This document shows, piece by piece, positions 27,237 to 61,520 of a DNA stretch of 64,000 nucleotides (positions are counted from its first letter, which is position 1; every line of letters starts with the position of its first letter). A program made the translations under genes and the position numbers. The notes below the pieces were generated by a model. It was not told the DNA's origin. It was given only the letters and a program-made list of their open reading frames with translations, and searched no databases. The stretch lies in contig JAUJYZ010001076.1 of assembly GCA_033675265.1 (NCBI GenBank), forward strand, positions 62,001 to 126,000, read 5' to 3'. The stretch is from Actinostola sp. cb2023 (lineage: Eukaryota > Cnidaria > Anthozoa > Actiniaria > Actinostolidae).

Positions 27237-27358
27237 AGTCTACAGCACCAGGTATTCCCAGGCGGTCACCCATCCAAGTAACCTAACCTGGCCCTACCGG
27301 GCTTGACTGCGGTGATCGGACGAGAACCGGTTTTTTTCCCGGTGGTATGGCCGTAGCC
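27237..27358 (-). rRNA. 5S rRNA gene, 5' flank replaced by element A
   Basis: The minus strand reads as 5S rRNA over about 122 bases: CTACGGCCATACCACC near the start, GGTTCTCGTCCGATCACCG, TACTTGGATGGGTGACCGCC, then GGGAATACC and GTGCTGTAGACT, followed by a TTTTT terminator (27233-27237). The internal control region is essentially complete. An A run (GGGAAAAAAACCGG) is unusual in the helix III region. The first bases are GG in place of GT and come from element A. In the spacer copies the 5S upstream side has a TATAAAT; here it is gone. Confidence 0.92.
27347..27356. other. Left integration core (5S target) of element A
   Basis: ATGGCCGTAG, inside the 5S gene on one side and next to the element A end (CCAGGCTTTGCTGAGCAATCG) on the other. 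Identical cores lie at 36222-36231, 61509-61518 and 12775-12784, and I saw no other copy in the window. Confidence 0.85.
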
Positions 27359-30351
27359 AGGCTTTGCTGAGCAATCGACACTAGACCTAGGCTTGTCCGA
27401 TATACTTCAAATTTGGTGTGGTGATAGCTCTCGATGAGTGAAACGTATTGACCAAGTTTGGTGAAGATCGAGTCAGGAGGGTTGAAGTTACGGCCTGTTA
27501 AACACCAAAAGTCGGCCATTTTGTCGAACTTTGAGAAGCTCTAACTCAGCCGTTTTTGAATCTATCTCAATTCTGTCAACTGGAGCTGAACAAGAGTCTC
27601 AAGATGTACCTTGCCTGTGAATAAAATCGTGATATGTTGTTTGCCGGTTCGCTTGTCGTGAAGTTTTCAAAACCACTATGTACTGACTGTAGCTACACTA
27701 GATGCAAACTCTTACTTGGTTTTTGGACTAAGTCAAGTTATGCAACTTCGTTAATATACAAGCTATTGAGTTGAAACTTTCACACAATCTGCCGGTTAGG
27801 GATAGTGATATACTGACGAAGTTTCGTAGTAATTGATGCGCATGCGTGGACATGAGAGCCGTTTACATTTTTTGTCAACATGTTGATTTTTGCTGACTTT
27901 CGTTAACGTGGATTTTCTCGCTGGTTTTAAAGACAAACTTAACGATATTTTCAGAACATTTTGTATTCGACTATATCTTTAGGCTGTGAAAGTTTGAATG
28001 TATTGCTTTGCATAGTTTTGATTTTAGAAAATTTTAGAATTTCAAAGTCAGCCAAAAACGACACATGTCAAAGGAAGTTCATGGACACACTACTACGTTT
28101 GGGGAAACAAAACTACATTCGCAGTAAAGGCCATTCCTTTGTAATGTCAAAATCTGCAATTAGTGCCGTCATTTTTACGTGTTCTTGATCACGTGACCGT
28201 TTGTTTGTAAAGGTCCGAAACACGTTCAATTTTCATATAGACGTTACGCTTGATATGTTATTCTTCACTAATACCCGTCAAATTTTAGTATGTTATGTAC
28301 CTTAATGAACTTAACATATTAGCTCAGTTTTAACTCACAATATTTTAAAGCGCATGCGTGGCGATTTTTTAACTGATTTTCGTTTAACGTAAGCTAAAAA
28401 AATAATAGTGCAACCTGCAGCTTGTAGTTTTCTTGTGCTAATAGACATTGATATTATGGCAAAAGTTGCAAAAGAGAGTTGGATTTGGATTAGAACTCAG
28501 TGCGTTATGGCGTGATAAATATTTGGGCAGCGGTAACTTTAGTTCACATTAGGGTTTCATATTACTTTGTCATTTCTTAGAGTACGCTCACGAAATACAA
28601 ATATGTTATGAACACTATTGAGCACTATAAGTATTACGAGTTTTCACGCCAAATTAATCAGCTGCGCATGCGCTAGCTGTCAGCAAATTAAGTGAGCCCG
28701 CGCTATTTTCGCCGTGTAAAAACCGCCTTAAACAATGTTTTTGACTCCAGTTTTTCACGAAATATGTTTAGCTGATAAAGACAAAGTTGCCACAAAAATT
28801 TGGTGATTGTACATTGTAACGTCGTAGAGATAAGGCCATTTATTTATTTGGTCAGCGGTCGACGACATTGCAAAATACGGTTTCACTTTTATTTCCTTAT
28901 ATCTGGCTGTACGTCAACGAAACTTCGATATGTTATTAACAACGTTGGGTAGAAGATATGATCGCAGTTTCGTGTCAATTACAGTAGCTGCGCATGCGTC
29001 AGATGTCAGTAAATTTTGTTGAGCCCGCGCTATTTTCATCCCGTAAAAACCGCTTTATTGAACGTTTTGAAAGACAGTCTTCACATTGTATGTTCATGTG
29101 GATAAGATAAAGCTCTCACAAAAATTTGATTGTTACCCAGTTAAACGCCGAGGAGTTTATGGCCTAATAATATTTCGGTCAGCGGTAATTATAGTCTACA
29201 ATTTGTTTTGCGATAGTTCAGTTAATTATAAGTTGTATTTAATGAAACTCATACGGTGAGGTAAGCTGTACGTGGGCAAAACGCAGCCGATATAAAAAAT
29301 GATTTCAATGTAATGCGCATGCGCAATGGTAGTCACAATATAGCGAGCCCGCAATACTCGTTTTTTCTGAAACAGCCTTAACGACAGTTTTGAAAACTCT
29401 TCTTTCGCACACTTATTGTCCTTATAAAAGCGAGTAATTTGTATTAGTTTGGTTAACTTTGGTTATACCCTGTATGATTTAATGCTTTCTCGGTCATTTT
29501 TAACCCTAACCTTCAGATGTGTTTAATAGTGAATGCAATTGCGCAATACCCATCAAAACTACCGTATGTGATTGAAAATCGATCATAAAGCATATATCTA
29601 CTAAAAAACATTGCTTTATTGTCATTTCCTGCAAAAAATTGGGTCGAAAATAGGCGAAGTTTAAACATTCACTACTTCTGCGCATGCGCACTATAATACT
29701 TGAATCACTCAACATATGTTGCTCATAGTCTTATATAAATCATTAATGGTTAGGAGTTACAAGTTTCAGTTGTCAAGTATAAGTAAACTGCGTGGAAATC
29801 CAACTCGTTTATACCAAAACTCCCCATTTGTCCTTAAATTGACAACGTACCACCCCTCCCTTCTCTTCAGCTGCAGTACTTACAGTCCTGTTAAGACGTG
29901 TTTTTTACAGCTCTCTGGTTTATGCGTTCACAGTCCCTTTCATTAGTTGGTCGACAAAATCAATCATAAGCATTGTATTTGTAAGGTAAGTAAACACTAG
30001 AAAGTTAAATGTTTTTTAAAGTTTAACACATATTTGACCGAAATTCGTGTGATTTAGTTCAGCTGTCTCTCATTACGAACGACAGTGGCCATTGTAAGTG
30101 AAAAAAAAAATAGATAGGGAAGGGTGGGTAGGTATGTTTTCTTCATCATGTTTGATTATTCAGTTTTAGCTAAAAACAACACAGTTTTGATACTGATTAC
30201 GCCTTTTATTCCAGACGTAAAGGAGTAAAGGAATGCCTAGGCGTGATATGGATTAATAATACATTATTATTAATTATTGATTTTCCGTGGGGCAATCCAG
30301 GGGGGGGGGGCGCGGTGTACTATTTCTTAACGTAATTTTATGTCTTTTAGA
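27359..30351. repeat. Element A left non-coding region with periodic TGCGCATGCGC units
   Basis: About 3 kb without a convincing gene. The palindrome-like TGCGCATGCGC (or a close variant) occurs at 27837, 28350, 28663, 28989, 29314 and 29679, mostly 313-365 bases apart. Each is followed by a gAGCCCGC-TATTTT-AAACCGCCTT block, and GGTCAGCGGT with an AGGGTTT segment occurs between some of them. The same arrangement is present in element B (41453 onward). It probably contains the promoter and a 5' intron of the recombinase gene; no motif identifies them. Confidence 0.7.
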
Positions 30352-33300
30352 ATGGCTTTTGTTTCAAATTCGTTCCTGATTTTTAACATGGGGACGCTAA
30401 GAGCGGCGTACCACCAAGCCTACAATATCGACAAAACACTGTGTAACGTGGTAGGCATTACATTTTGCTGAAAGTAATAATATTGCCGTTAGTTTTGATG
30501 CCTGCCGTTCATTTCAATTTACTTTTAAGCTTCAAGACCAGTTCAAGCTCAATAAAAAGCTATTACAGCATTGGTATGGAGTGACCGATGTTGGCGACAT
30601 CACCACTCCACTGGGCACAGCTCTGCACCCTCAATTTCCTTCCGTTGAAGGTGCGTCGTACACATATGCCTTAATAATATATTGATATGGAATGAAGTTA
30701 ACATTCTAACGCTTCGTTACAGATTATGGCGGGGTGTTCTTCACTTCTCTACGTCCACCGCAAACATCGTGTGTTAATGCAGAAGTTCAAACCGGTAAGA
30801 TACTTACCATATATTTTATAATAAATTCATATTCTAACAAAGAGTTATTTGGTTATTCCAGACAAAGTGGACGCATATCCACCTATTATCATACATGCAG
30901 ACCAACAAGTTCAATGCAATGAAGCAGAGCGCATTCTCGATGGCATCGATAGTGACGATGAAGACATAACGCCGCATTACAAGCCTGACGTAGTGCATAG
31001 TGAAAGCCAGACATATTCGAAAGTTATTGTTGTTGACGCTGGTAAGTGTGGTTTCTACATTGAATTAATTCTTACTCCGCGATTGCAAATAAAACCAATC
31101 ATTATTATTCACTGACAGGTATCGACCTTGAAAGAGCGACGTTTATTGAAGCGAAGGGTATGTCTGACCTTCCAAATTCTGTTTGTAACCGTAACTAATT
31201 ATTATAAAAATATTGTTTTGCTTTTAACATTGACGTTTCAGCTGATAAAGGGACTCAAACCATTGAAGTTTGTGAGCGGCTGGTAGTGCGGCTGAAGGAT
31301 ATATGCCGCTACCACAACGCAGGTAAGTAATATTTAGATCAATTGTTTTGGCTAGCGTTCAATCCCAATGAAGGACTTTACTATTTTAGGATCTCAAACG
31401 GAGATAACATCAAGCAGCGGTGTTGCAATACAAAACCAAACCTGCACCGATGAAGGTACTGATTGTGCTACCGACAATGGTTCTACTGGTAAGCGCAACA
31501 ACGGTAATACAATACTTAATGTTGAATCTCAATTAAATTGAGTTTATTATTACATAGGCAAACTGTTACATCAACCAATGCAGTCCGATGCTGAGATTCA
31601 ACTCAATCCACGAAGCAGTAAGTGTTGCACAATACGCATGTGTTGATTCTTAAGCTATTCGCAGTCACACAGTAATTCATCGCTTTTTAAAGGCTTGCCC
31701 TTAGAACCACAAATTATTGTTCTCTCTGGTCATGACGACAATTTCAGTAAGGACGAAAATGTGACCATGGCACAAGCATTCGTTGGTCAAGGTGCGTATA
31801 TGCCTCGATGTATACAAACAGCTTGTGTCGAGCTATAATCACTTGTTGTATCAACTTAATATTGTAGATCCTGACTTGGTAGTGTGCGAGAGAGATGAGC
31901 AAGATATCAATGATGAGTTTCAACCAAATCCACAAACCAGTGAGTGTTGTATTCATGTGTTGATTCTTAAGATATCCATACATTAATTAATCCCTTTTGT
32001 AAAGGCTTGCCCTTAGAACCAGAAATTACTGTTATTTGTGGTCATAACGACCAGTTGAATGAGGACGAAAATGTGATCGTTGCACAAACATTCGTTGGTC
32101 AAGGTGCGTATATGCCTCGATGTATACAAACAGCTTGTGTCGAGCTATAATCATTTGTTGTATCAACTTAATATTGTAGATCCTGACTTGGTAGTGTGCG
32201 AGAGACATGAGCAAGATATCAATGCTGAGTTTCAACCAAATCCACAAACCAGTGAGTGTTGTATTCATGTGTTGATTCTAAAGATATCCATACATTAATT
32301 AATCCCTTTTGTAAAGGCTTGCCCTTAGAACCAGAAATTACTGTTATTTGTGGTCATGACGACCAGTTGAATGAGGACGAAAATGTGATCGTTACACAAA
32401 CATCCGTTGGTCAAGGTGCGTATATATGCCTCGATGGATACAAACAGCTTGTGTCGCGCTATATAGTAACTTGTTGTATCAACTTCATCTTGCAGAACCG
32501 GCTGAGTTGGTAGTGTCAAATCAATCAGTGGATGGTATGTATATGAATATTTATGAAAGTCAATTCGAACTTGTTTACACGAGTATTTATTGCAGTAGAA
32601 GTAGAAGAAATTGAGCAGCCACCATCTGGCGATGAAAAGGAAGACGACCTAGAAGAGGACATAATAGGTAACCATTGCATCCCACTCAAAGTAGTTTGAG
32701 TTACTGTTGTTAGACTTATATTTTATGTTTCTAGAAACAAAAATACTTCATAAGAAGGCGGTGTGCCACATATGCAAGGACCAGGTAGCAGCACTACCAC
32801 GTCACTACAGGCTTGTTCATGAATGGACAACAGAAGAGTATAAGCAGTTTAAGCATAAGGGGCGTGAAAATGCGAAAACAAAAAATCCCAGGAGAAAGTG
32901 CCCTTTTAAAAAGTGCACCTTCACGGCTGTGCGATTTGACAGACACTTTTCAAAAGAGCACAAAGTTCAACGTAATACTGAGAAGTAAGAGCGACAAAAT
33001 ATACAATAAAGCATGAAGATGGTGATCTGATTATATTTTATTTTAATTAATCCAGATACAAGAAGTTAATTAGGGCGCTGAGATCTTCAAGAGTAATCGA
33101 GAAGCATTCTGATACAGGTAAGCTAGTAAAGTACAAATTAGTTTCTAATCGTTAAATGTATGTTCTACAATTACCTGTTTATATTCTAGTAAAAAGAGAG
33201 GAAAAGCCTGAAACGCGGCAAATAAACAATCCACCACGTAAGTGTATGGCTTTGTAAATATATAAATATCATTCACTAACCTCATTTTCGTCATTTCCTT

Positions 33301-33491
33301 AGCCGCCACTACAAGCGCAAAGAGGAAGTATGTCTTGGTAGAGGTTGAGGACAAAGACGGTCCCGTTCCGAAGGATGCAAGAACAGAAGAACAGAACGAG
33401 GAGGAAAGCGATGACAATGGTTCTGATTGCGAAGGTAATGCGCATTTGATGATAGTTATGTTGTAATTAGCGAATACAAAATATGAATATA

Positions 33492-33526
<35 letters not shown>

Positions 33527-35787
33527 GTTGCATTGACCGCGGAAAGTCAGCAAGATCTTGAAGATGACCTAATGCCGGCTTCGAACATTGGTATTTCAAC
33601 TGAAACAGTGTTTGGCAAGTCAATCCTTGCCTTCAAGGAACATCTCACGAGGCCTGATGGTGGCAAAAAGGTAGGCAAGTGAGAGAAGCATGTGATAATC
33701 ACGTTACTAACTAAGGCTCACTACATTTTGTTTACTCTCCTTCACAGCCAGAAAGACAGGCTATTATTGTTTCGAGGGAGGTTTCCAAGATAGCATGCAT
33801 AGTTTGCCTTGACACTGAACCCTGCGATCTTTCGCAGCCATGGCTGGATAAAGATCTAGTATGGGGGTCATTCTTTGAGCCAAAACTTGAGGAATACAAT
33901 AAGTATCACTCTGGCAAAGAACACGGTATGAAAAGTAATCTGTCGTTATATAGCTTAATTTATTATTGATGATTTTTATTGATGACTTATTCTATTTATT
34001 GAATAGATATCCCAAAGGGTCTTTGCCCCAGTACGTTGCAGTGCTACTCTACAGCACTTGAAGAATATGGAAACTTCATTTTGGCTGCTCGAAAATGGTC
34101 CAACGAACTGTCCGAAAAGGGAAGGGACGGACTGAATGGTAAGTGAAAATTGAGACGCGTAGCAGTAGCCAAAACGGAGTGAAATGCTGAAATCGTTTGC
34201 TTATGTTGTTAGCTCTTACCAAATGTCAGAAGAAGTGGCGGTACGCCCTCAAAAAAGACCGTCGAATCCAGGTATCCATCCTATTCTATTCTAATCATTC
34301 ATTCCATTTATTTGATAACATTTGTTTGTTAACTCAGAACAACAGACGATTTGTTGAGGATAAACACAACATTTTATCACTGGAGGACATCCATAAAGTT
34401 TTGGATTCACAGGTATATTAGGCGGTTGTCGAAACCATCTATATTCACAATAAAAATAACTTGTTGAATAATATTGTCTATCTTCGCAGCATGCCAAAGA
34501 TTGTGCGGCGAGGCTGAAGCACTACTATGATCTTATCAAAGACGAGAAGACGGTTAGTATGGCAACAATAGGAATGTTCAAATGCTATGAACCTAACAAT
34601 ACACGCTTATCGTTTAAAACCTTTAGAAGACTCCAACTGTCGATGCCGAAGAAGGGCGAAAGCTACAATGCTTCCTGATGACATTTCTATTGGTGGGTAA
34701 TGCAGGGCGTGCATCGCTGTTATCAAAGTTTACCTTCCAGGCAGCGGATGAAATAAAGAACGAAAACGACATTTACACCGCTTTCATAACCGACCACAAA
34801 ACGGCAGCATCAAAGGGAACAGCCTATCTGCAGATGCGGCGTCCTGGATATCGATACCTGAAAGCGTATCAATATGTCGTGAGGTAATAATTAAAATGGT
34901 CGTCTGATTTCATATCCTTGTAGTGTGTTAATTATATTTTTATGTCGTAGGCCTACCTTTCAGACAGTGAATTCAGACAACTCATTTTTTTTAACTACAA
35001 CTGGTAGAGCTGTTACAAGCAGCGCCGTCTCAAACTACATTGCCGCCTTTGTGAAGGAGTCGGGAGTACTGCCAAGGGAAAAGGCAAGGTGTTTCATGTT
35101 TTACCATTTTCATAGCGTGTAGCAACTTAACCATTCCCTTCCTCATATAGGCCTGCCCTACAGACCTTCGCAAGATGTGGGTCACCACAGTGTACAAAGA
35201 TGGAACGCCAAAGGAGAGAAGGCAATTATCAACCAAGATGGGACACGGCGAGAGGTTGGCAAATTGTTAACTATACTGCAACGTATCAAAAGTATTTTGT
35301 GGATCTCAAGTGTTTCATATTTATTTCTCTAGGACGGCTCAAATTTGGTACGATTTTACCGAGAAACAAGACGAGGCAACGGAGGCCTTCAAACTGATGG
35401 AAAACCATCTGGAAAGTGTAGGGGGGAAGAAGACCGACGAAGAGTCTCCTGTCAAGTCGAGCAAATTAACACCCAAGAAAAGGTTGGATTTCGTATCTCA
35501 AAAATCAAAACGTATCGGTTAGGAGTTAACATGGAATGATTTGGGTTTCAGGAACAGATGCTCATGGAACAAAGAGGAAGAATCAAGCGTAACTGTCACG
35601 TTCCGCGAGGAAATACGGTCTACAGACAAACTGAAGAAGGCCACAATATTGGCCAAGTTCAAGAAGGACCTTCCCAACATCTATGCGAAGGAAGACAGCT
35701 ATAAGTGGCGTGAACGTTGCTTTGACAAAGTGAGATCACTCTGGAGGCGCTACAGTCCAAGCAGTGAAGTCAAGAAAAGTTCTTAAA
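30352..35787 (+). CDS. Element A tyrosine recombinase with C2H2 fingers and SANT-like tail (multi-exon)
   Basis: A gene of about 25 exons, introns mostly 65-90 bases with GT/AG ends. The ATG at 30352 (MAFVSNSFLIFNMGT) lies 2 bases after a splice acceptor, as in element B. Order: an unknown N-terminal domain (exons to 31041), an acidic linker with three duplicated exon pairs (31693, 32005, 32317), two C2H2 fingers (32735-32986; CHIC...H...H and CPFKKC...H...H), a core-binding domain (33528-34553), then the catalytic domain with GNAGRASLL (Arg, about 34705), DHKTAASKG (Lys, about 34795), DLRKMW (Arg, about 35165), KMGHGER (His) and WYDF (Tyr, about 35355). A Myb/SANT-like exon (35551-35787, WNKEEE...RCFDKVRSLW) ends the protein. 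No RT. I saw no stop inside the exons I could join. Confidence 0.8.
31693..32534 (+). repeat. Tandem exon amplification in the element A recombinase gene
   Basis: A 312-base unit holding two exons and two introns is repeated: exons beginning GCTTGCCCTTAGAACCA start at 31693, 32005 and 32317, each followed by an exon DPDLVVCER...NPQT (the last one divergent). Exon and intron copies are both highly similar and frame is preserved, so the linker grew by recent unequal exchange. Confidence 0.85.
33495..33527. repeat. ATT/TTA microsatellite in an element A intron
   Basis: About ten ATT units just before a splice acceptor (ATTAG at 33527) in the recombinase gene. Confidence 0.8.
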
Positions 35788-36221
35788 ATAAAATATCGTT
35801 TCATTGATATATCCCTCATTCATATTCTCATGAAATTGTAAAACCGAAGGGTAGTGATAAAAATACAGTGATTAAACTGATAAGTGGTTTGTTTTTGTGA
35901 ACATTCTGAAGAATCCGCAAAGAGAAAGAGCATCGATTGGAAGCTAAACGCTCTGTTCACGAAAACACACACAATCACTTGGGAAATCATCTAAATTACC
36001 AGAAATCATCATAAAATACATAAAAAGTAGAACAGAATCATCAAACAACATGTAATTTAAAACGAAGAAAAAACAACTGTCGATATGTCAGCATTTTCGT
36101 GTCGAAAAGTCAGCATTTCGTGTCGATCGGTCAGCACATTGTCGAAAAGTCAGCCTTTTGTGTCGAAAAGTCAGCAAAGTGTCGAAAAGTCAGCAAAACC
36201 GTGTCGATTAGTCAGGAAAGT
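35788..36221. repeat. Element A right end with subterminal GTCAGC motif array
   Basis: Non-coding 3' region. Between about 36080 and 36220 the motif GTCGAAAAGTCAGC and its variants occur about seven times at 15-25-base spacing, the last (GTGTCGATTAGTCAGG) touching the core at 36222. By analogy with recombinase arm sites, these are candidate binding sites. Confidence 0.75.
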
Positions 36222-36231
36222 ATGGCCGTAG

Positions 36232-36989
36232 CCATGCATTGCTGACACGGAGACACTAGTATCTAGATTGCTTCATTTAAGCTCATATTCGGTACACATG
36301 TAGACCTTCGTTAGTAAAGCTTCCAGAGTTACAGACGTTTAAGGAGGCTGGAAAGGGTATTTCAGAATAACTATGCACTCATTGACAAACTCCTATAACT
36401 TTAAATTGCTTTAGACAAGATATTGATTCAATATGCTATTTTGAAGCTGGACAAATAAAGATTCGAAAATTTATGACAATATGACGTTTGATGTTGTCAT
36501 GGCAACTACATAGTACTTCCAATTAGACCCTAAATTCTCATTTAAAAATTTATAACTCGATTTCCATTCGGTGAATTTTTTTTTTAGCTTGCAAATTTTG
36601 AGTTTCACCCTTGATCTTTCTTTTGAGAGAAAACGAAAAAATTCTGTAATGCGAAATTCATAATATATCGCAAAAACCTATTTTGTTAGTTATAAAAAGC
36701 TTCTCATTACAGAATTTGTTTCTATTTCGCCTATACAATTTTGAACCTAAGTAGAAAAAAATGTCAAAAAATTAAAACATTTTACCGAACAGTTTTTGAG
36801 TTATTGGCATAAGAATTTCTTGTACACGTCAGATGGGTCTTGTAAAACTAGAAGAACTGCGCATGCGTCAAGCTTACCATTCGAGAACGGCCTTCGAGAA
36901 CAGTTGAACGATGCGAAGAAATTGGAGTTTTGAGTTCTTTAAATAGCGTTTCGTCGGATAATAATGAATGGCTTTCAAGTGAGGATAGA
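36232..36989. other. Element B left end and Kolobok left flank, non-coding
   Basis: The first 110 bases are the left end of element B (homologous to 27357-27460). From 36343 it is the Kolobok 3' region: A/T-rich, no reading frame, one TGCGCATGCGT at about 36857. Confidence 0.55.
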
Positions 36990-38099
36990 TTACTGTGTTT
37001 CGAAGTGGTAAATTATAGAAGCAATGATGCGTGAAGTCTTGGAAATTCTTGCTGTTGGTCGAGATGTCGTTGGGGACGTTGATGGCGGCAAAGCGAGTAC
37101 TGCATACAGTCCTATTTTCCCGTACTGCTGGTATACACGATTCAAGTGCTGATAGGAAATTCCTTGGATCGTCATCTTCTTAATGATTCCTAGTTTAACT
37201 GGACCCTGATCGTTAAAATGGTCGTAAAGATTTCCTTGATACGAACGCACGAGGTCGTTGCTTTGGTCGAGTAGCTTTATGTCTCTAAAGGCATCCTCAG
37301 CTGAAATGCTGTTACATTCATTAACAAGGAGTTCCCGACTGAGTTGGAGAGGTGAACTGCGTGACAAAAACAGTTTACACAGTGCTTTTGAATCCTCGAG
37401 GGCATCGTGTGCATCAAATTCTTCGTTCATCAAAGTGTTGAACAAAGTTGATAGGTTTTCTTTACTGGGCATCTCTACATTTGGCGGAGGATGTTTTTTG
37501 AGGTAGCGAACGATTGAGCGGCTGTCAGCAAAGTACACATTCATGTCTTGGAGTTGATCAACAAAGGATTTACCTGCAGTACGAAGGAGAACAGGAGTGT
37601 CAAAGAGTTCAGAATTGTGTCCAAGTAGAACAGTTACAGGCTTTGGATTGAGAGCTTGATCAAGTGGTGCTATGAAGTGGAGTAGTTCTTCCAGGCAGAC
37701 TTCTAATGATACGGTAGGTAATTCAGTGTTATTCTTGTACAATAGTCTTCTTCCATTTTCTTTAACTACGTGTAAATTATTTACTATCTGAGCACTGTCA
37801 CTGACTTCACCTTTGGGGACGAGGTATTTAGATAAACAATGTCCATCTTCCTTGATTGCAGCTAATTGACAGATTTCTGCCGAACGACCCAAGGATGTCG
37901 TTTCAAGATCAAAACAGATGAAATGATAATTTAAATTAGAACTGTAGTGAAGTTGGTTCTTGTTTGGACGGATTTGGCGAGGAGGAAGTAGTTTTTCAAA
38001 TTCTTTGAGTTCAGAACTTGATATAGTGTCCAGGTTTATGCCATCGAGTACTTTTAACTTATTGATAACTTGTTGTTGTTGTTGTTGTTGTGACAATGT
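36990..38099 (-). CDS. Kolobok-associated DEDDh 3'-5' exonuclease domain
   Basis: About 368 residues of the DnaQ-like family: motif I FDLETTSLG (about residue 60), motif II GHNSELFDTPVL (about 160), motif III HDALEDSKAL (about 230). A polyglutamine run coded by CAA repeats precedes it. There is no ATG before motif I. The open frame overlaps the end of the transposase exon (stop at 38107-38105) in another frame. It is therefore either the C-terminal part of the transposase reached after a frameshift (mutational or programmed), or a separately spliced exon. Related transposon proteins with an exonuclease after the transposase are my recollection of the family, not something seen here. The frame ends at 36990. 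Confidence 0.72.
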   Translation of the reverse strand, partial: TLSQQQQQQQVINKLKVLDGINLDTISSSELKEFEKLLPPRQIRPNKNQLHYSSNLNYHFICFDLETTSLGRSAEICQLAAIKEDGHCLSKYLVPKGEVSDSAQIVNNLHVVKENGRRLLYKNNTELPTVSLEVCLEELLHFIAPLDQALNPKPVTVLLGHNSELFDTPVLLRTAGKSFVDQLQDMNVYFADSRSIVRYLKKHPPPNVEMPSKENLSTLFNTLMNEEFDAHDALEDSKALCKLFLSRSSPLQLSRELLVNECNSISAEDAFRDIKLLDQSNDLVRSYQGNLYDHFNDQGPVKLGIIKKMTIQGISYQHLNRVYQQYGKIGLYAVLALPPSTSPTTSRPTARISKTSRIIASIIYHFETQ

Positions 38100-38104
38100 A
38101 ACAT

Positions 38105-48748: not shown

Positions 48749-48935
48749 AAAAACAATGACTATTTAAATTTCGGAGCAATTTTTGCATTCGGTCTATAGA
48801 GCTTCGTCTTTTTGCAAAAGTTATTTTTGCGTTTGTTACTTCTGTTACTGTGTATCTTGAATAAAGATGAATACTGATTAATAGTTATTTTTGCGTTTGT
48901 TACTTCTGTTACTGTGTATCTTGAATAAATAGAGG

Positions 48936-49620: not shown

Positions 49621-51186
49621 TTGACTCATAGAAAACTCGAACTCATAGTGTAATTGTTAAACAGTGATGGGTTATTTTTAATAATTAACTTTCAATTGTC
49701 AAAAAATATCTAACTGGCATGGCGAGAAACTGGTGCGCATGCCCAAAAACGAAATATCAAAATGTGCTGTAAAAACGGGTAACTGCAGTTTTGTGCAACT
49801 TGTCGCGCAACATTGTTGCGTTGAAAGTTGCACAGTTAAGATTCACTCATCATCATTCATATGGTGAAAATAAGCATCATACATACTTCACTGTTAGAAT
49901 AGTTTCATCTGTCAATTAAAAAATGCATCTTGGTTGATGATGTCATGTATATCCAAACACTAGTGGGAATACGACCGGTCAGGAGGCACTCTACTACCCG
50001 GACTATAGTTTTTCGTGTATATCTCTGATAAAATCGCAATATTATAATTGATCAATAAATAACTAATACATGTTGAAGACACTACCAAGGACTATTATAT
50101 ATGCACATTTGAGAGTGTTTGAATTGTTATGGTTAAAGTTGTTATTTTTAAAATTTAGAAATGAAATAAATTCTCACACCCCAAACAATAACAATACATA
50201 TTTCTAAATCACATATTCGTATTGAGAACTAGTTACAATACATTTTGTGTGAATTTAGTTGAGATTGGTTAAGTCCTTCTGGACAGTTGTTCACATATTG
50301 GTTATTTTAGTGGGAACACGACCGTTTTCAGTCCTACTTTTAAAACCTTTATTGTGGTACTTTCCCGTTGAGCTGTAGCTCTCAAATTTTCCAAGTCTGT
50401 TAGTCTATCGTTTACCTTTACATCAGTGGTACTGTTATGAGACAAAATGTTTTTTAAGTGAAAATATCAAATTTTATATAATGTCACCTAAAAACCCATG
50501 AAATATCTCTAAAAACAGGTGGAATTAATATTTTGTCTCCTTATTTCTACAACACATACAAAGAATAAAGTTCATTAACCTGTCGAATATTTGTTATATT
50601 CCATTAAATTTTCAATGAGATACTGCTCAGTTCAAATTCGGTCTGGATCCCACTTTTTGGATCTCGGTTATTGCGCAATCGATGACGTCACAAAACCTAC
50701 CCCTCCATTTGTCTTGGCATCCGCAACATTTGTTCAAAGTTTGGTTGCAATTGGTTTATTCTTTCCAGAGTTATTTTAATAAATATATATTCGCACGAAT
50801 TAAGAAATAAATCAACCATATTCCTGCACAAGGCTTAGTGGGCTCGAAGTTGTTTACTCTGTCGCTCATCGCCATTATTGGGCACGCTCATCATAATTGA
50901 CTGGGAGATAATATACCTGGATATCTATCTTCACTGGACATATTTGATCGATCCGTTGTTATGGTAACGTTTAAGATCATATCAAAGTTTCACGACCGAA
51001 ACTTCCGTGTCACGGTGAAATGCTGTATCTTCAAAACACCATGACCAATTTTGTTCATCTTATGCCATCTTGACCTAGTAGGGCTAAAGTTATCGTACAC
51101 CAGTTTATAACCATAAGCCTGTATATCGAAGACAATAATGATTGATATGAAAAAGCGTATTTTGGGAGATAAACGACCGATAATTA

Positions 51187-51188
<2 letters not shown>

Positions 51189-51222
<34 letters not shown>

Positions 51223-51376
51223 CAGTAGTAGCAGTAGTAGTAGTAGTAGTAGTAGTAGTAGCAGTAGTAGCAGTAGCAGTAGCAGCAGTAGTAGTAGTAG
51301 TAGCAGTAGCAGCAGCAGTAGTAGTAGTAGTAGTAGTAGTAGAAGTAGTGGTAGTAGTAGTAGTAGTAGTAGTAGC

Positions 51377-51446
<70 letters not shown>
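51189..51446. repeat. GTA trinucleotide microsatellite, about 85 units
   Basis: Nearly continuous GTA with scattered GCA and AGA units. Valine/alanine reading frames across it are artefacts. Confidence 0.95.
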
Positions 51447-51888
51447 TTTTAGTTAATTATTTACCAATGCCCAGGCTAGTACCATACAATTAAGCTGATG
51501 CCATTTGTGAAGTCTATACATTTTGTATATGTATAGGTAAGGTATACAGGTGTACAATGTTGATGATACTCTCTATAATGGCTTGAACGAGGAGGATACA
51601 ACGTGCATGGTTGCTATTGAGATCAGAGAAACTATACTAACTCTTGCTAATTTTTATCTATATAGGGAAAGTGAGTTTGTTTGATTTGGAGAGCCGTACA
51701 CGTTCCGTTATACTATTGGAGGTGATGCGGCTACAAAATGATACTTGGAAGCCATGGAAATACCAGCACCAGTTGAAAGTTGCTAAATAGGTGTCGAGAA
51801 GCTAAAATCATGTCCCATGTCTATGTTGGAATAATAATAGCTTTAATGATATATTGATCTCTCTACTTGTTAAGCTAAGTACTATATA

Positions 51889-51980
51889 CAATATGAGCGG
51901 CCGATCTGTATGGGATTTACAAACTCGAGCCGTAGGCGAGAGTTTGTAAATCCCATACAGATCGGACGCGAATATTGTAT
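51889..51980. repeat. Hairpin with 26-base perfect arms
   Basis: CCGATCTGTATGGGATTTAC at 51901 and its complement to 51965, with a 13-base loop; weaker pairing extends outwards (TACAATAT/ATATTGTA). Confidence 0.9.
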
Positions 51981-53599
51981 ATTACTTATCGAATCCAACG
52001 ATGTATAAGTGGATGTTTTACTATAATTTGGATGATAGGAAGCAGTTTGGCCGAGAAAATCCAAGTTAAAGTTGAATGCAAATGAGGACGAATCTGTATC
52101 CGATTTACAGATGTCCTTCACGGTAGTGATTTCTATTGTATTTAACTCATTAATTATTCATGAATTCGATAATGTCTCATAGACATGTTGGAATAATAAT
52201 AGCTTTAATAATAGATTGATCTCTCTACTTGTAAGCTAATGTCTCATAGACATGTTGGAATAATAATAGCTTTAATAATAGTTTGATCTCTCTACTTGTA
52301 AGCTAATGTATCATAGACATGATTAATCTCTTATAATTTGTAAATTTATTCCTTGAGAGATTGTCTTGTGCATTACCTAACCCATGAAACAAAATTAATG
52401 CAAATACCAATAATGAATGTGTATGTCAAATTGACCAAAATAATGTAGATTATGAATACTAGATTGTGAGAGTGTGTCTGTTTTTGACTATCAACATTAA
52501 TTTTCATCGGCTATGTGCAAACCACTCTGAAGAAAAAACATGTATAAACTCCAGTACAATGTATACATGAAGTCAGTGAATAATATCTGATTGTAGTTTA
52601 ATTGAATGTCACTAACAGTGAATAAGTAGAGTAAAGATAACAAACTCATGAAAAAAATAGCCTTTTGAACTACATGTCCAATTGTACCATATTATATTTT
52701 TATATTATTATATGTTCTTTGGGTATTAGTGCTCCTGGTCTTCCATTTGGGTGATGGATGTTGTGGGTAACCATAAGTGTTACATTCACCGTAGCTAAAT
52801 TGGATGATCATTTGCCCTGTCGAATGCTTGAGACACAGACACAATCAGTTTCACATTATGGCCATTCCTACTTGGATTGTTGAGTGTACGACTGAAGTAT
52901 TTATTCACCTCTCTAGAGCTGGGGGGAGGGGGGAGGGGCTGGTGGGGAGGAAAGGGTGGGGGGCGCTTAATATAAAAACTTAATTTCAACTCGGAAACAA
53001 CTTCCATATGGTACTACATATAGGAACATGACTTAACTTTGTAATAAAATGCAAGTTCTATTCCATATTCTGTAATCTCTTACTGTACCATATTTATTGG
53101 GGGAGGAGTGGGGGTGCATAATCGAGAGGGGGGTATTTATTTCAAATTTTGAGGGGGGGGGGCTTAATCGAGGGAAGACGCTTAATTGAGGGTGGGTACT
53201 TAATCGAGGAAATACGGTATGTTAAGCCACAGTTTTCCCTCAGGTAGAAGTAATGTACAGATGAAGCAGTAAAAACATACAACCCAATTACATGTAGATA
53301 TCTGTGTAGAAGCTAAAAAAGTGTGAGCAAAATCCGAGCCACAGACTCATTGAGCTTCTACATACATCTAATATATTTTTCAGTGAAATTGTCGTTTAAA
53401 AACACAATAAGCTAAGTAATTATCAACTTTAAAGTTTATTGAATTTAATTTCATTGCAAATTGTTCGTGAAATCTCAACTTATAAACATTGATATTCAGT
53501 GACACTAAATAATATTAAAATGGTACTCAAAACTATATTTCAAAAGCTAGTAGTATAAATAACTCAATGAAAAGTAAACTTTACCATCTGATCGAGTGT

Positions 53600-53847
53600 C
53601 AGATGTTTAAACTGTTCAATGATGGGCAAGAGAGCATCCAGTGACTTGGCAATACAAAACTCCTTTAATATCGAACCCTTCTCTACCGATACCTTCATAT
53701 TTTGCGAGACATTTTCGTAGTTTTTCTCTCTCACTGTCTTCCTCCTCGTCTACTACATCGCCTTCCTCGCTAATGTCATCATCATGGCTAAAACTCTGCC
53801 CAAAAATATATTCTAAACCTTGTTCAGTGTTGAAACCTGCCGCCATT
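53600..53847 (-). CDS. Small acidic exon of unknown gene at the right end of the 11-kb element
   Basis: On the minus strand ATG 53847 begins MAAGFNTEQGLEYIFGQSF, then an acidic run (DVVDEEEDSEREK). The frame stops near 53616, but a one-base shift near 53655 would let it run on as CIAKSLDALL to a GTAAAG donor near 53585. It lies about 90 bases inside the end of the element, transcribed inward. I do not recognise the product; a degenerate first exon is the most that can be said. Confidence 0.3.
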
Positions 53848-53942
53848 TTGATTTTTCAAACTCAGCACTCATGAAGTCTACCGCTGTACAAAAGATATGG
53901 CGAACCCTGGCATTTTTGAGCGCGCGCGTGCCCTACGTGGCA

Positions 53943-54654
53943 CACTCGTGCATGCGCACTAGACACGTCGAAACATTATGGATGTGTTGCTTATAGATGT
54001 ATCTTATCCACTATATGTCTGGTATACTGATCGCTCTTAATGCAGTACATGTATTTGTGTCACCTAATCGTGCTAAAATACCAAAAAACCCGCTAGTTTC
54101 ATAAATTGAAATGCTCCCTCCCCTCCCTCCTCTTTCACTGGTGTACTGACAGATATTGAAAGACGTGCATTTGAAGCTCACCAAAACGTGTTCAGTTCTC
54201 GCTGTGTTTAGCTTAGTTTGATTCCTCAAACAATAACGATCATTTTCGTAAGGTCAGTATGTACTAGTTTATGAACAGATGTTAAATGTTTGTTGTATAT
54301 TTAAGCGGCGATCGCCTTATTTCCTCTCGGTCTTTGATCGTCAAAGACGATCGTGCTATTGCACAAGAATAGCAAAAAGCTATTCTAAAGGTGAGGGAGG
54401 GGAGGGTCGTTCGTGCACACGATTAACGATAAAATAGAATAAACCGCAATACTGTCTATTTGTTTCAAATTACAATGCTCAAAATACAATCAAAATACAC
54501 CAAAACTTCAACGTGTGTTACCCAAGAACACTGCTAGTGAATAGTAACAATATTAGGTAATGTTACATAATTGCGCATGCGCTACATTGCACTAAACTTT
54601 AGCGAGCCCGCTAAAAAAAAAAAACCGATGTATATGTATTTTTCTTCTTCTAGA
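53943..54654. other. Element B left region resumed, upstream of its gene
   Basis: No reading frame. TGCATGCGCACTA at 53948 and TGCGCATGCGC at 54572 continue the periodic units interrupted by the 11-kb insertion. The second is followed by CACTAAACTTTAGCGAGCCCGC, then by the splice acceptor TTCTTCTTCTAG that ends at 54652. Confidence 0.6.
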
Positions 54655-57600
54655 ATGGCAGTCGCATCTTTTAATTTCCTTAGTTTCAATATGGAATCGC
54701 TGAGAGTCGCCTACCACAAGGCATACAAGGTTAAAGACCTTGCTCTTTGCAAATTGGTAGGTATCTCAGGTTGCAAATATTAATGACAGTGCTATAGGCT
54801 TATTGGTCCTTGTTCTTTTGCGTTTACATTCAAGCTTGAAGAGAACTTCAATTTCACTGGTAGATTGCTGGCCAAAGTGCACAAGCTTAAAGTTGGAGCG
54901 ATATCGCAACGTTTAGACCAACCTTTGCATCCAAAATTCACAGCGCTGGATGGTAAGCAACTGCCTTCATAATATACTGATAATATACATGACTGATATA
55001 CTCTTTATGTTAACATTAGACATGCGAAGATTGACTTTTTCTTCCCTGGCCCCGCCGGAAACGTCAATGGCGGATGTGGAGATACAAACTGGTTAGTAGC
55101 GTTCACTCTCCTACATTACCCAATGAAAGTGAATTTTAACAAATAAATGTATTTGTCTATTATAGACGAGAATCCTCCACTAATTCGATTTAAGACCTCA
55201 TGCAGCCAATCCACACAGTGTGATCCCATTCTCCCTGTCCCCTTCTCTGAACCTGCATATGTCAGTATGCAGGACCGAGAGACTCAGACAACATGTAAAA
55301 TCAAGGTCATTGAAGTGGGTAAGTTTTGTCTATGCTTGATGTCTATTTCTCTATGGTTATAAACTACTCGCTCTTAATTGTTTATTAATAGTGATTGATG
55401 ATGCCGTTCTGAGGAAATCGTCTGGAATATCGACGATAATTGTAATAATGGTAAGTATAATCAATAATGTACAAAAATGTGTTCCCATTGAAATGTTGGA
55501 GCTCAAAGAATTATTATTATTATTACTATTATTATTACAATGAATGGTTTCATTCCTTTAGGCGATCAGGTTGCTACATCTTCAGGCTCCATTGCGGGCA
55601 AAACTCGAACGAGTAAGTACCATATTCATGTATATATATTGGTGCGTTGTGCTTCCCCTCATTATGTTTGTTTTTTTCTCTTAAAGTGATACCCTTAGAA
55701 CCCAATATTATTGTTATTATTGTTATTGAACCACCACCTCAAGGTGAGAACAATGTAGAATGTGCCGTTATTGACACGCCTGGTCCAGAACGAACGAGTA
55801 AGTACCATATTCATGTATATATTGGTGCGTTGTGCTTCCCCTCATGATGTTTGTTTTTCTCGTAAAGTGACACCCTTACAACCCAATATTATTGTTATTG
55901 GACCACCGCCGGAAAGTGAGATCAATGTCGATTCTGTCGTTCTTGAAACGCCTGAACCTGACGCTGATGGTAAGTGCATCTTTTGTAATCAAGGTGAATG
56001 CAAATATATTTACGCAGGTATTTATTTCAGTACAAGAATTAGAAGTCGACGACGCGCAGGCAAGAAATGCAGAAATAAGCGACGACGATGAGGAAGATAG
56101 CGCCGGTGAGAAAATATCAGAAAATAATCAACTCCACATTATTTTATTTACACGTTTTGTTTTAGACCTAGGTACCGTAACAACGCGCTCAAAACGTGTG
56201 TGTCCGGTGTGCGGAAAACTGAGGAGTCAGCTGGCGAGACACCTTAAGACGTTTCACGACTGGTCGTCAAACAAATACCGAATTTTCAGTTTGGGCGGCG
56301 ACAACACGAAGACCAAAAATCCGCTGCGAAAGTGCCCTGTGTCAAAGTGTGGCTTCCGAAGTGTACGTTTCGACAGGCACATACCTTCAGTCCACAAAAT
56401 TAGACGTGGTTCTGAGAAGTAAGTACAATGAAAGAACATGAAATATCAAACAGAGTGATCATTGGTTGGCATGTCATTTTTTGTCAGGTATAAGACGCTA
56501 ATGAACAAGCTGCATTCAACCAGTCTGGTGCAGAAACACCTTAGTGTTGGTAGGTAATACTTGTGATCCAGTAATATAAACCCCTAGTGAAATACGTGTC
56601 ACCTTAGGATTCCGTTTATTTTATAGACGGTTGCGCTAAAAAGCCCCAGAAAGTGACAACACCTAAGAAGAAGGGCACGTCGAAACTGCAAAGTAAATAT
56701 GTCAAATTATGTACTCATTTCATTTTCTGTATTTCGATGAACGTTTCGTGTTATTTCTCGATTCCCTTCTAGAAAAGCAGCCCGCTACACAACCCAAAGT
56801 TGTCGAACAACAACAACAACAACGCACGGACACGGATGAATTGCAATCACCGAGTAAGTATATTGTTTTCTAGATAGATAAATATTATGAACTGACTTAA
56901 TTATTCGTCAGGGCCAGAATCGACACGGAAACGAACAATGATAGTATCCGATAACGACGACTCGGACTTCGATAACAACGAGAATGCTCCCAAAAAGCAA
57001 TGCAACGAGAGTGTGACTTGCGAAAGTGATGTGGATATGGTTGATGAGGACGTAGATGAATTCAATGTAGAATGCGCCGAAGAAGAGGAGGAGGAATTGG
57101 CGGCGCCCAATGAGTCATCATTGGGTTTTACAGATTCGGAGTTTGGGCAGTCTATGGCAGACTTTAAAACTCACCTCATGCTACCTGACGGCGGCAAAAA
57201 GGTATTTAAGGATAGACATATAGCAATGAAAATGTCCGCGACTAACCGTGTTTTACCTTCAACTGATAGACTGAAGTCCAGGCTAATATAGTGACGAGAC
57301 AGGTCTCAAAGCTCGCCATTTGTATGTCGGAAGGAAAGGAGCCGAACAGCATGTCTGGCCCATGGATGGACAAAGAGAGAGTGTGGAAGACATTTTTTGA
57401 GCCGAACCTCAGCGAGTACAACTCCTCTCACGAGACAGGAAGAGAGAAAGGTATGGAATATACTTTTTTGACTTATGTTCATGTTGATAACTTATGTATT
57501 ACAATATATCAATAGCTATTCAGAAGGGACTCAGCCCCAGCACGTTACAGTGCTATTCTGCCGCAATGGAAGAATATTGTAACTTCCTTACCTCGAACAA

Positions 57601-59230
57601 CAAGTGGACAACGAAGTTCAATGATAAAGAAAGAAATGCTTTAAGCTGTAAGTGAAAGTGTTACCGTATCGTAACGAAAACCTCATTTTAATATTGGTGT
57701 CTTTGCTATATTAGGCATAGCAAAATGTCAGAAAAAATGGCGTCTCTCTCTAAGGAAGGATAGAAGAGTACAGGTATTGTCATCTATAATGGTAATAAAA
57801 CATGCTATTCATCGTAACATATGTTATTTTTGTTTTCACAATAGATGAACAGGCGGTTTGTTCAAGACAAGCAAACCCAACTGACCCTCGATGATATCAA
57901 CAAAGTGTTGAAGTCAGAGGTACATTACTCAGTGACCAACACAATTTAAACTGAATGCCCAACTGACTTTTTTATTTTTCTATTTTGCTCACCAGCATGC
58001 CAAAGATTGTGCCGCAAGGCTAAAATACCTTTATCAGCTTGTCAAAGAATCTAAGCCGGTTAGTATACAGTAACACATTGACAATCGTATAACCTATATG
58101 GCAATATATTTATATTATAATTTTCAGGTGCCTGTTATTGAGAAAGCGAATTGCCGTCAGCTTCAGGCTTTCCTCATCACGAAGCTGGTAGTCGAAAATG
58201 CCGGTCGTTCGTCGCTACTATCCAACTTCACTCTCAAAGCCGCTGATGAGATGACGCCCGATGATGGCCTATACACGGCCTTCATCACGGATCACAAGAC
58301 TGCCGCTTCTAAGGGAACGGCTTTCCTACAGATGCGTCGTTCCGGCTACCGGTATTTAAAGGCGTATCAACACGCTTTGAGGTAAGTATGGAATTATATA
58401 TCAAATATGTTTAGGGAATCCCTTTGATTTTATAATTCTATAATATCTATGCCATAGGCCAATCATTGAGGCACCCAAGTCGGGATCACACTTTTGTCTA
58501 AATTCCGCCGGGACGCCAATAACAAGTAGCATGGTGTCCGGCAACGTGCAGGCATTTGTAGTCGAGGCAAACGTTTTACCCCGGGACAAGGCCTGCCCAA
58601 CCGACCTGAGAAAAATGTGGGTGACAAGCGTGTACGCGGACGGGACTGAGGCTGAAAGAAGACAACTCTCCTCAAAGATGGCGCACAGCCCAAGGTGGGT
58701 AAATTTTAACCAATAAAACTCAAATAATAGCTACGTATCAATCACTGTTTGCTAATATATTCCTGTCCATAGAACTGCCCAAATATGGTACGATCTCACG
58801 GAGAAAAAGACGGAGGCGTCAGCAGGTTTCGTCCTAATGGAAAAGAGACTGGAACACGCAAGTGGGGAGGCGGGAGCGCAAGAAGAGTCGCCAGTTAAAT
58901 CGACTGCTATGAAGACCAAAAGGTATGGCGATGTTTCTTCAAAATGTTATGTAGCGACAGAGACGTAATATAATTATTTCTCACAGGAAAAAGAAATCGT
59001 GGACCAAAGAAGACGAGGTAGCGATTGTGGCTGGGTTTCTTGATGACATCAAGTCACCAGAGAGACCAAAGTTGGCAGAAATATTGGCAAAGTTTGAAAA
59101 GAACCTGCCTGCCATCTACAATCGTGAAAATTCCAAAAAATATCGAGAGCGCTGCTTCGATAAGGTCAGGGCGCTCTGGTCCGCACATAACAAACCAAAG
59201 CCGTTGAGTAAAGAAAAAGAAACAGCATAG
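54655..59230 (+). CDS. Element B tyrosine recombinase with C2H2 fingers and SANT-like tail (multi-exon)
   Basis: Ortholog-like partner of the element A gene, with matching exon order. ATG 54655 (MAVASFNFLSFNMES) follows an acceptor; the first exon ends at 54756 (GTAGGT). Two C2H2 fingers lie at 56170-56420 (CPVCGKLRSQL...H...H, CPVSKCGF...H...H). The core-binding domain spans about 57130-58060, the catalytic Arg ENAGRSSLL about 58195, Lys DHKTAASKG about 58290, Arg TDLRKMW about 58605, His KMAHSPR about 58680, and Tyr WYDLT about 58790 after an intron. The last exon (58988-59230) is the SANT-like KKSWTKEDE...RCFDKVRALW. The usual His three residues before the second Arg is replaced by Thr, as in element A. 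All exons I could join are open, so it may be functional. Confidence 0.8.
55687..55977 (+). repeat. Duplicated linker exon in the element B gene
   Basis: Exons beginning ACCCTTAGAACCCAATATTATTG (about 55690) and ACCCTTACAACCCAATATTATTG (about 55870) and the introns between them repeat with a period of about 181 bases. Confidence 0.75.
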
Positions 59231-61508
59231 ATAGTACAGGAATCGAAAGTTATGCCAACACTGTACGATTAGATCATTTTGTCCCTTCTTCAACGTTGTA
59301 ATTGATTGTACACAAAAATTGGTTACGTTTTCTTCACATACGCGAAAGTTAGATCGATTTCACTTTCACCTGTAAATGTCGCTTCTTTGCTGACAACTTC
59401 AATTGGTCATTAAACCGTTGTTTTGAAGACAAACTTCACCAAACTTTCAGAATAATATTTGTTTAGCATATTCAATATGTATGCCAAGTTTAGTTGCATT
59501 TGGTGGAATTGCTGTTATTTTCGGTTTTCGATATCAGCAAAAATCGACACTTTGTGCGCCATTTTTCTACCCGATTCATTCTGCTTAGAACGGTTCAATT
59601 GTATTTTTCAGAAACCTTATTATCTGCCTACAACAGCGAAATGTTGATAATAACGTATTTGTAAAGACTTCTTTATCAGGTGAACGTTTGAACATAGGCA
59701 ACTGAAAAGTAACGGAAATATAGCGATTTGGGAAGACTGGACTGATAAATGACATGTCCTCCCTGTCCTTGGAATATGACCAGCACTATACCACTAGAGA
59801 ATGTGTACCTTCTTAAACGTTGATTGTACACATAAACTGGTTAAGTTATCTTCAAATACGACAAAGTTAGATCGATTTGACTTTCACCTGTAAATGTCGC
59901 TTTTTTGCTGACAATTAGAGAAAACTCAACCAAACTCTCATATCTTAACTTCATTTGTTTATGCTGTAGAACATGACAAAATGTAGTTGTTATTAACATA
60001 TTATTAAAGGATCTTCATGCACGAACACAGGTAACTCTTGTATTTCCTTTAACCTATTATTTAGTAAAACAACTTCAATTGATCAAATTCATATGAAAAT
60101 CACTTTCCGGTGAACGAATTCTACGGAATTCGAGTAGAGCAGTTCCTTAAAATGCTGTAAACCATGTTTAAACAAAAAAGGAATGGAAAACAAACACTTA
60201 GACCAATGCTTAAAATAGTGTCGCCATGTCAGCAAAAATGTCTCCATGTCAGCAAAAATGTCTCTATGTCAGCAGAAATGTCGCCATGTCAGCAAAATCG
60301 CGACGTTAAAAATCGACACTTAAAATACGTTTTCTGCTGACAACTTCAACTTCAACTGTTCTGGTGAACGAATTATTCGGAACACCAGATCCTTATATTG
60401 CCGTAGGCCATATTTAAACAACAAAGAAATCACAAAGAAACACTTAAAACAAAGCCTAGAATAGTGTCTCCATGTCAGCCAAAATGTCGCCATGTCAGCA
60501 AAGTCGTGCGGTTAAAAATCGACACTTAAAATGACGTTTTCTGCTGACAAATTCAAATGATCAAAGCTCTCTTGTTTTTAAGGGAAACTGCACCAAACTT
60601 TCAGAACGTTCTTTGTTTATGCCGAAGAATATGACAAAATGTTTTTATTAGCATAATATTAAAGCGATCTTCATCACGTGACCGTTTAAACATAGCCGTA
60701 AAATCTTAACATTACGTACTATTTAAAAAATATAAAAATATAAATATCTATACTTTTAAGACTATTTTCTTATGGCAAACCATTGCAGATCAACAGAGTA
60801 GTTCCTTAGAATGCCGTAAATAATGTCGGAACACAAAAAGATCACACAACGGATCAAGGAAAGCAAATAAAAAAATTGCCGTAAAATACCACTTTTTCAA
60901 CAAAACAAAATCATATCAAAATCACTTTCCGGTGAACGAATTCTTCGGAATTCGTGAAGAACAGTGTCTTATAATGCCGTAAAATGTGTTTGCTTCAAAA
61001 GAGACACAACAAGACACGACGAAAACAATGCCCAAACTAGCCGTAAAACAGTATTTTTACAAAGGCAAATATTCTTCGGAAAATGCTTTGAAAGTTAAAT
61101 AATTTTACGTCTGCGAGGAAGAATACTTCCATACAATGCTGTAAATGATGTTTTAACAATACGAAAAACAAAGAAAACAAAGATTTACAAAGAAAACACT
61201 CGCAAAAACTACACGATTTTCATACGAAAATATTGCTATGAAACTTCTCTCCCGATCAGCTCATTTCTTGTCTAAATGAAAGAACAGTACCTTATAATGT
61301 CGAAAACCATGTTTGAACAAAAATGAAATCACAAAGAAACACTTAAAACAAAGTTTAAAGTAGTGTCTCCATGTCAGCAAAACAGTGTCTCCATGTCACC
61401 AAGAAAATGTCGCGCGGTCAGCAAAAATGTCTCCATGTCAGCAAAAATGTCTCCAAGTCAGCAAACGTGTCTCCATGTCAGCAAAAAGTGTCTCCATGTC
61501 AGCAATGC
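59231..61508. repeat. Element B right non-coding end with GTCAGC motif arrays
   Basis: Non-coding. The segment near 59287-59420 (GTTAGATCGATTTCACTTTCACC, TGTCGCTTCTTTGCTGACAA) is repeated at about 59813-59920, an internal duplication. TGTCTCCATGTCAGC arrays lie at 60218-60300 (four) and 61363-61508 (seven), the last touching the core. From 59764 onward it is nearly identical to 11031-12784. Confidence 0.8.
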
Positions 61509-61520
61509 ATGGCCGTAGAC
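61509..61520 (-). other. 5' end of 5S rRNA gene at the right junction of element B
   Basis: Minus strand GTCTACGGCCAT, the first 12 bases of 5S. Upstream of it (61547-61553, minus strand) TATAAAT lies at -27 to -33, a plausible 5S upstream element. The rest of this 5S gene is 34 kb away at 27237-27346, across elements A and B. Confidence 0.82.

What the first reader, a model, noticed from the sequence alone, without database searches (positions are those of the whole stretch)
27347..61518. Two tandem tyrosine-recombinase transposons integrated at the 5' end of a 5S rRNA gene
Seen: the core ATGGCCGTAG occurs at 27347, 36222 and 61509 (and 12775), always in the same orientation, and equals the complement of the 5S 5' end. 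The left copy sits in a complete 5S gene, the right copy continues into GTAGAC plus 5S upstream DNA. Element A ends match each other (GTGTCGATT...) and element B ends match each other (GTGTCTCC...), and the A/B junction carries the right end of A and the left end of B. Both contain a YR gene with Arg, Lys, Arg, His and Tyr motifs. Known: tyrosine recombinases and Cryptons recombine at short shared cores. Inference: site-specific integration into 5S by these enzymes, twice in succession. I know of no described transposon of this kind with 5S as target.
Basis: partly seen in the sequence, partly recalled or inferred. Interest (0 to 1): 0.93.

Follow-up and report, generated by a model that had tools for sequence, protein, structure and literature searches.

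The report
5S-targeting tyrosine-recombinase transposons in sea anemone
A sea anemone genome carries jumping DNA elements with a phage-integrase-like enzyme that sit at one exact spot near the start of 5S ribosomal RNA genes, here two of them back to back.

Summary
On a 389-kb contig of a sea anemone (Actinostola sp. cb2023, inferred), elements A (27357-36225) and B (36232-61512) stand in tandem at the 5' end of a 5S gene, with the core CCGTAG (5S nt 3-8) left of A, between A and B, and right of B. Each has inverted terminal repeats and one intact multi-exon gene (1107 and 976 aa) with a tyrosine-recombinase (YR) domain. B is 25 kb only because two other transposons sit in it (net about 9.5 kb). 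Eight outward-facing right ends were found, all on this contig, and all 8 abut 5S upstream DNA; a second A copy, 2 substitutions apart, occupies another 5S gene; 11 of 16 5S 5' ends found are empty. Best reading: a YR DNA-transposon lineage, distantly related to CryptonV-like elements, integrating at 5S by site-specific recombination. 5S as target is not new: fungal Starships (YR) and fish Dada (DDE) use it. An animal YR transposon at 5S was not found in my literature searches. Strand chemistry is inferred; a 6-bp target duplication is not excluded, and two remnants elsewhere could not be tested.

The parts
27237..27356 (-). 5S rRNA gene (target), cut by element A after nt 3; Rfam match printed as 27237-27358
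   Evidence: Rfam RF00001, 95.8 bits; empty 5S copies L003-L006
27351..27356 (.). core CCGTAG at the 5S/A junction
27357..36225 (+). element A (YR transposon, 8.9 kb)
   Evidence: junctions; near-identical solo copy A' 39 kb upstream
27357..27381 (.). A left inverted terminal repeat
   Evidence: 20 of 25 positions match the right end
30352..35786 (+). A gene, 30 exons, open frame of 1107 aa, YR domain
   Evidence: hand-made splice model, one GC-AG intron; 45% identical to B protein over 785 columns
36078..36221 (+). tandem repeats of about 20 bp (GTGTCGAAAAGTCAGCA) at the right end of A
36201..36225 (.). A right inverted terminal repeat
36226..36231 (.). core CCGTAG at the A/B junction
36232..61512 (+). 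element B (YR transposon, 25.3 kb with, about 9.5 kb without nested elements)
36232..36256 (.). B left inverted terminal repeat
   Evidence: 24 of 25 positions match the right end; I14
36343..41117 (-). nested transposon with TTAA on both sides and a Mutator-like transposase gene; not part of B proper (name Kolobok recalled)
   Evidence: inverted arms I24, PF20700 1.8e-102
42965..53938 (.). nested element with inverted ends and 5-bp duplication GGCAC
   Evidence: I4, 37 nt, 97%; B copy without it in L076
45375..48502 (+). third YR gene N (frame broken near 47790) between (TAG)n tracts; CryptonV-like
54655..59230 (+). B gene, 22 exons, open frame of 976 aa, YR domain
   Evidence: hand-made splice model (one exon of my first model was dropped); database gene model P0001 has 18 of the 22 exons, the last cut short
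60219..60297 (+). 20-bp tandem repeats near the right end of B
61362..61505 (+). 20-bp tandem repeats (AGTGTCTCCATGTCAGCAAAA) at the right end of B
61488..61512 (.). B right inverted terminal repeat
61513..61518 (.). core CCGTAG at the B/5S-upstream junction
61519..63629 (.). 5S upstream DNA running to a U2 gene: right flank of the tandem
   Evidence: matches flanks of A', B' and L050-L054; U2 at 63630
11028..12784 (+). B', truncated B relative with its right end at the same 5S position
   Evidence: 98% identical to 59765-61518

Best explanation
A and B belong to one lineage of YR-encoding DNA transposons, a distant relative of cnidarian CryptonV-like elements, that integrate site-specifically into 5S rRNA genes at nt 3-8. 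Proposed steps: (1) the element excises as a circle whose joined ends form a XerCD/lox-like site, two inverted arms of about 11 bp (CCATGCATTGC) around the 6-bp core CCGTAG; (2) its YR pairs this site with a 5S gene, which offers the same core and one similar half-site (CCATAC, nt 9-14); (3) strand exchange within the core inserts the element and leaves the core at both ends; (4) each insertion leaves a core next to a 5S half-site, so a second element can enter beside the first. A, which looks young, probably entered at the 5S/B junction of the older B. Shown by sequence: ends, cores, target, genes, empty sites, repeated use of the site. Inferred: circle, YR chemistry, order of events.
Confidence: 0.75

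Rival explanations
1. Cut-and-paste by a DDE transposase supplied in trans, with a 6-bp target duplication CCGTAG (Dada-like targeting); the YR gene would be a passenger.
For: Inverted ends plus a 6-bp direct repeat at a small-RNA gene is also what Dada makes (6-7 bp duplications; PMC8869645).
Against: The only long gene of A and of net B encodes the YR protein. The DDE gene inside B belongs to a nested element with its own TTAA-flanked ends. Dada-5S hits ATTCCCAGGCGGTC, another part of the 5S gene. A and B have different terminal arms but the same core.
Confidence: 0.12
2. The repeated junctions mostly reflect duplication and gene conversion of one old insertion within the 5S/U1/U2 cluster, not repeated targeting.
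For: All outward junctions lie on one contig within about 216 kb; right flanks are 88-98% alike; A' and B' right flanks are 97.9% alike.
Against: A and A' are nearly identical but their left flanks share only 106 bp around the 5S, and the A' and B right flanks are 92.3% and 89.4% alike. A and B are different families (56% in the YR half). In 4 of 5 further copies the terminal part of the element is less like B than the flank is (L051 81.0 against 93.1%, L052 77.3 against 88-90%, L053 90.3 against 94.1%, L050 94.9 against 97.6%); L054 is the reverse (96.8 against 95.4%).
Confidence: 0.08

Closest known systems
CryptonV (cnidarian Cryptons; known to me through PMC8869645, which cites Repbase Reports 2012)
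   Same: Cnidarian DNA transposons with a YR and target preference; the nested gene N, flanked by (TAG)n, fits this group, and A/B proteins are collinear with N (24-28% identical to N and its relatives).
   Different: CryptonV is described as inserting in microsatellites (some families); A/B use 5S, have split genes, and are far from N and its relatives, which are 50-62% alike among themselves. Repbase itself could not be checked.
CryptonA / CryptonI (animal Cryptons)
   Same: Animal DNA transposons whose known gene is a YR.
   Different: Reported to have no terminal repeats, direct or inverted (PMC3212892 section 8); here inverted ends of about 25 bp and a fixed gene target.
Starship Osiris (Enterprise family, fungi)
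   Same: YR element inserted in 5S rDNA; Starships often have direct repeats of 2-12 bp and inverted ends (PMC12153272).
   Different: Mean lengths of the Osiris haplotypes listed there are 38-138 kb, with cargo; fungal; captain-domain kinship was not tested beyond the absence of a Pfam hit.
Dada-5S (fish)
   Same: DNA transposon targeted to 5S genes with about 6-bp repeats.
   Different: DDE transposase, different 5S position (ATTCCCAGGCGGTC; PMC8869645).

Membership tests
YR-encoding DNA transposon (Crypton in the wide sense) | encodes a tyrosine recombinase | tested here: met
   motifs, link to N and XerD/PF00589 matches, core-binding fold; A and B alone have no Pfam hit
YR-encoding DNA transposon (Crypton in the wide sense) | no reverse transcriptase (against DIRS/Ngaro) | tested here: met
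   no frame above 81 aa outside the YR gene in A or net B; no RT match for either protein
YR-encoding DNA transposon (Crypton in the wide sense) | circular intermediate recombining at a short shared core | not testable with these tools
   only the shared 6-bp core and arm-core-arm layout were seen
animal CryptonA/I | no terminal repeats (as reported in PMC3212892) | tested here: not met
   inverted ends in A and B
CryptonV | YR sequence within the CryptonV group | tested here: inconclusive
   24-28% to N and three relatives against 50-62% among them; no Repbase references held, no rooted tree made
CryptonV | microsatellite target (some families) | tested here: not met
   target is 5S; note this marks only some CryptonV families
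Dada | DDE transposase encoded | tested here: not met
   Pfam scan of A and B proteins shows none; the DDE gene in B is in a nested element with TTAA ends
Starship | captain YR of the fungal (DUF3435) type | tested here: inconclusive
   no such Pfam match at E <= 10 for the three YR halves; captain sequences were not compared directly; the domain name is recalled

The most novel reading that the evidence does not exclude
An undescribed lineage of animal YR transposons with a lambda-integrase-like two-level design: 11-bp inverted core arms plus a one-sided array of about 20-bp repeats bound by the protein's zinc fingers, which would give direction to integration into the 5S gene as a multicopy safe harbour. 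Fungal Starships and these anemone elements would have reached the 5S gene with YR enzymes independently.
Probability: 0.35. Interest if true: 0.75.

Novelty: new variant of a known kind. Interest (0 to 1): 0.6.

Why it matters
Animal transposons that use a tyrosine recombinase and hit one fixed position of a multicopy RNA gene would be natural Cre-like insertion systems with a defined, possibly harmless target, and a case of convergence, since YR elements of fungi and DDE elements of fish also settle in 5S genes. The A-B tandem would show stepwise accretion at one attachment site, as in bacterial islands, in an animal chromosome. Open genes and exact end sequences make the idea directly testable.

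Tried and rejected
Rejected: B as a 25-kb cargo element (two nested transposons account for the size). Rejected: the Mutator-like gene as B's transposase (own TTAA-flanked ends). Rejected: the 5S fragments on C649 and C880 as further YR insertions, although they too break right after CGTAG; their left side resembles that of five other 5S 5' ends (L058, L059, L064, L067, L069), so they look like retro-copies of a 5S-headed element (by eye).

Led nowhere: protein database searches with B and with A+B+N found only the window's own gene model (in both only the nearly 8000 candidates sharing most words were scored). PDB sequence searches gave nothing or unrelated weak hits; PHROGs nothing relevant. 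The single-sequence AlphaFold model was useless (mean pLDDT 34.6). The genome search with P0001 was dominated by its misjoined retrotransposon tail. In one search, 99 matches stand against 91 in the backwards control; 10 of the 99 are on C804 and are the element ends discussed; of the other 89 I looked at one (C348, L055), which shows no element. A search for further left ends was sent six times and not answered. The table speaks for residues 426-586 of the model only.

Papers: PMC8869645 passages; PMC3212892 abstract, sections 5 and 8, passages; PMC12153272 passages; PMC12220804 and PMC12747079 passages; PMC3706591 and PMC4640811 search listing only. That an animal YR transposon at 5S was not found in print rests in the held open-access library; Repbase Reports are not held and most subscription journals are missing.
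Full report
WHERE. The window is C804:62001-126000 of a 424-Mb genome. A protein predicted on a contig of the same length (388949 bp) is annotated as Actinostola sp. cb2023, a sea anemone; the identification is inferred from that match. The surroundings are a small-RNA gene cluster: U2 at 26700, U1 at 27015, 5S on the minus strand at 27237-27358, and another U2 match at 63630, with long retrotransposon-like frames next to U2 sequences (by eye).

JUNCTIONS. The four exact core hits are far above chance (0.08 expected). As left flank, core, right flank: 5S GGTGGTATGG CCGTAG CCAGGCTTTGC (A left); A right GTCAGGAAAGTATGG CCGTAG CCATGCATTGC (B left); B right GTCAGCAATGCATGG CCGTAG ACAAAATTAAAAGG (5S upstream). 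Upstream on the contig a solo copy A' lies between a 5S gene and 5S upstream DNA: GGTGGTATGA CCGTAG CCAGGC and AAAGTATGG CCGTAG ACAAAATT. As A' has ATGA on the left and ATGG on the right, only CCGTAG needs to be shared; the longer match partly reflects likeness between the element arms and 5S nt 9-14 (CCATAC), which I read as a half-site.

EMPTY SITES AND COUNTS. A pattern for the 5S 5' end (up to 2 mismatches; backwards control 0) gave 16 places: 11 run on into ACAA.. upstream DNA (empty at this site, several of them broken further inside the 5S by other sequence), 2 hold A-type left ends (A, A'), 2 are 5S-headed fragments broken at CGTAG|CGATCC, 1 is diverged. L067 and L069 are empty sites with the same flank type as the occupied ones. 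A pattern for the B-type end gave 7 right ends on C804; with A' that makes 8 facing outward, all 8 followed by ACAAAATTA(A/C)AAGGCG, 7 with core CCGTAG and 1 (L052) with CCATAA. Three left junctions are known (A', A, B). At least one B copy has lost its left end (L076), and B' is cut at 11028.

NESTED ELEMENTS. B contains a TTAA-flanked transposon (36343-41117; arms, PF20700) and an 11-kb element with 5-bp duplication GGCAC (42965-53938), the latter confirmed by a B copy without it. Inside the 11-kb element lies a third YR gene, N, between two (TAG)n tracts; its frame is broken once. Relatives are in Actinia and Nematostella. CryptonV is described as cnidarian and in part microsatellite-specific (PMC8869645), so N is probably CryptonV; Repbase could not be checked.

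DISTRIBUTION. With the B YR core as query (66 matches), A/B-type genes lie at 9 places: 7 on C804 (B, A, A' and four more at 83-94% to B) and 2 remnants elsewhere: C91, about 86% to B in DNA, cut by the contig end on one side and by unrelated sequence on the other, and C900, 147 bp. The remaining matches are 23-35% identical and mostly in one continuous frame, like N. So 7 of 9 places are in the C804 cluster, and the targets of the other 2 are unknown.

TIMING. A and A' differ inside the element by 2 substitutions and 8 small indels; two of the indels fall in exons, so A' reads as broken. The A' right flank is 97.9% like the B' flank and 92.3% and 89.4% like the B flank; the left flanks of A and A' share only 106 bp. 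In the five further copies, element end against flank identity to B is 81.0/93.1 (L051), 77.3/88-90 (L052), 90.3/94.1 (L053), 94.9/97.6 (L050) and 96.8/95.4 (L054). B carries two later insertions. I infer that A is younger and entered at the 5S/B junction; gene conversion between A and A' cannot be excluded.

MECHANISM. The joined ends of B would read GCAATGCATGG-CCGTAG-CCATGCATTGC: 11-bp inverted arms around 6 bp. PMC3212892 states that YR sites are typically two inverted repeats of 11-13 bp separated by 6-8 bp. Beyond the arms, the right ends carry 20-bp direct repeats (A 36078-36221; B 60219-60297 and 61362-61505), while each left end shows one unit in the terminal 30 bp. N has such repeats near its left end instead (44079-44236). 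I take them as possible extra binding sites for the zinc-finger part; untested.

COMPARISON. 5S as a transposon target, and a YR element at 5S, are known (Dada-5S, Starship Osiris). An animal YR transposon at 5S was not found. I therefore call it a new variant of a known kind.

Noticed in passing
44064-51186, gene 45375-48502: A CryptonV-like YR gene (N) between two (TAG)n microsatellite tracts, nested in element B; frame broken once; relatives in Actinia and Nematostella.
   Followed up: partly
36343-41117: TTAA-flanked transposon with a Mutator-like transposase (PF20700) and a separate exonuclease-like frame (PF00929), nested in B.
   Followed up: partly
42965-53938: 11-kb element with GC-rich inverted ends and 5-bp duplication GGCAC; its own transposase was not identified.
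   Followed up: partly
about 15360-26690 and from about 63700: Long retrotransposon-like frames directly beside U2 sequences, suggesting U2-targeted non-LTR elements; by eye only.
   Followed up: no
L008, L016, L017, L018, L019 (L007 similar): 5S genes whose 5' part is replaced after ACCGGTTTT (or ACCTGTTTT) by GTACGTTTTT plus sequence that differs between places: perhaps another family using the 5S gene at a different point.
   Followed up: no
L058, L059, L060, L063, L064, L067, L069: 5S 5' ends joined near nt 41 to a similar foreign sequence (GTTGGACAC-type), as if a 5S-headed retroelement uses the 5S promoter; two copies (L060, L063) break right after CGTAG.
   Followed up: partly
28350-29700, 41454-42610, 54573: Palindromic GCGCATGCG-type motifs repeated in the left parts of A and B and before the B gene; role unknown.
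   Followed up: no
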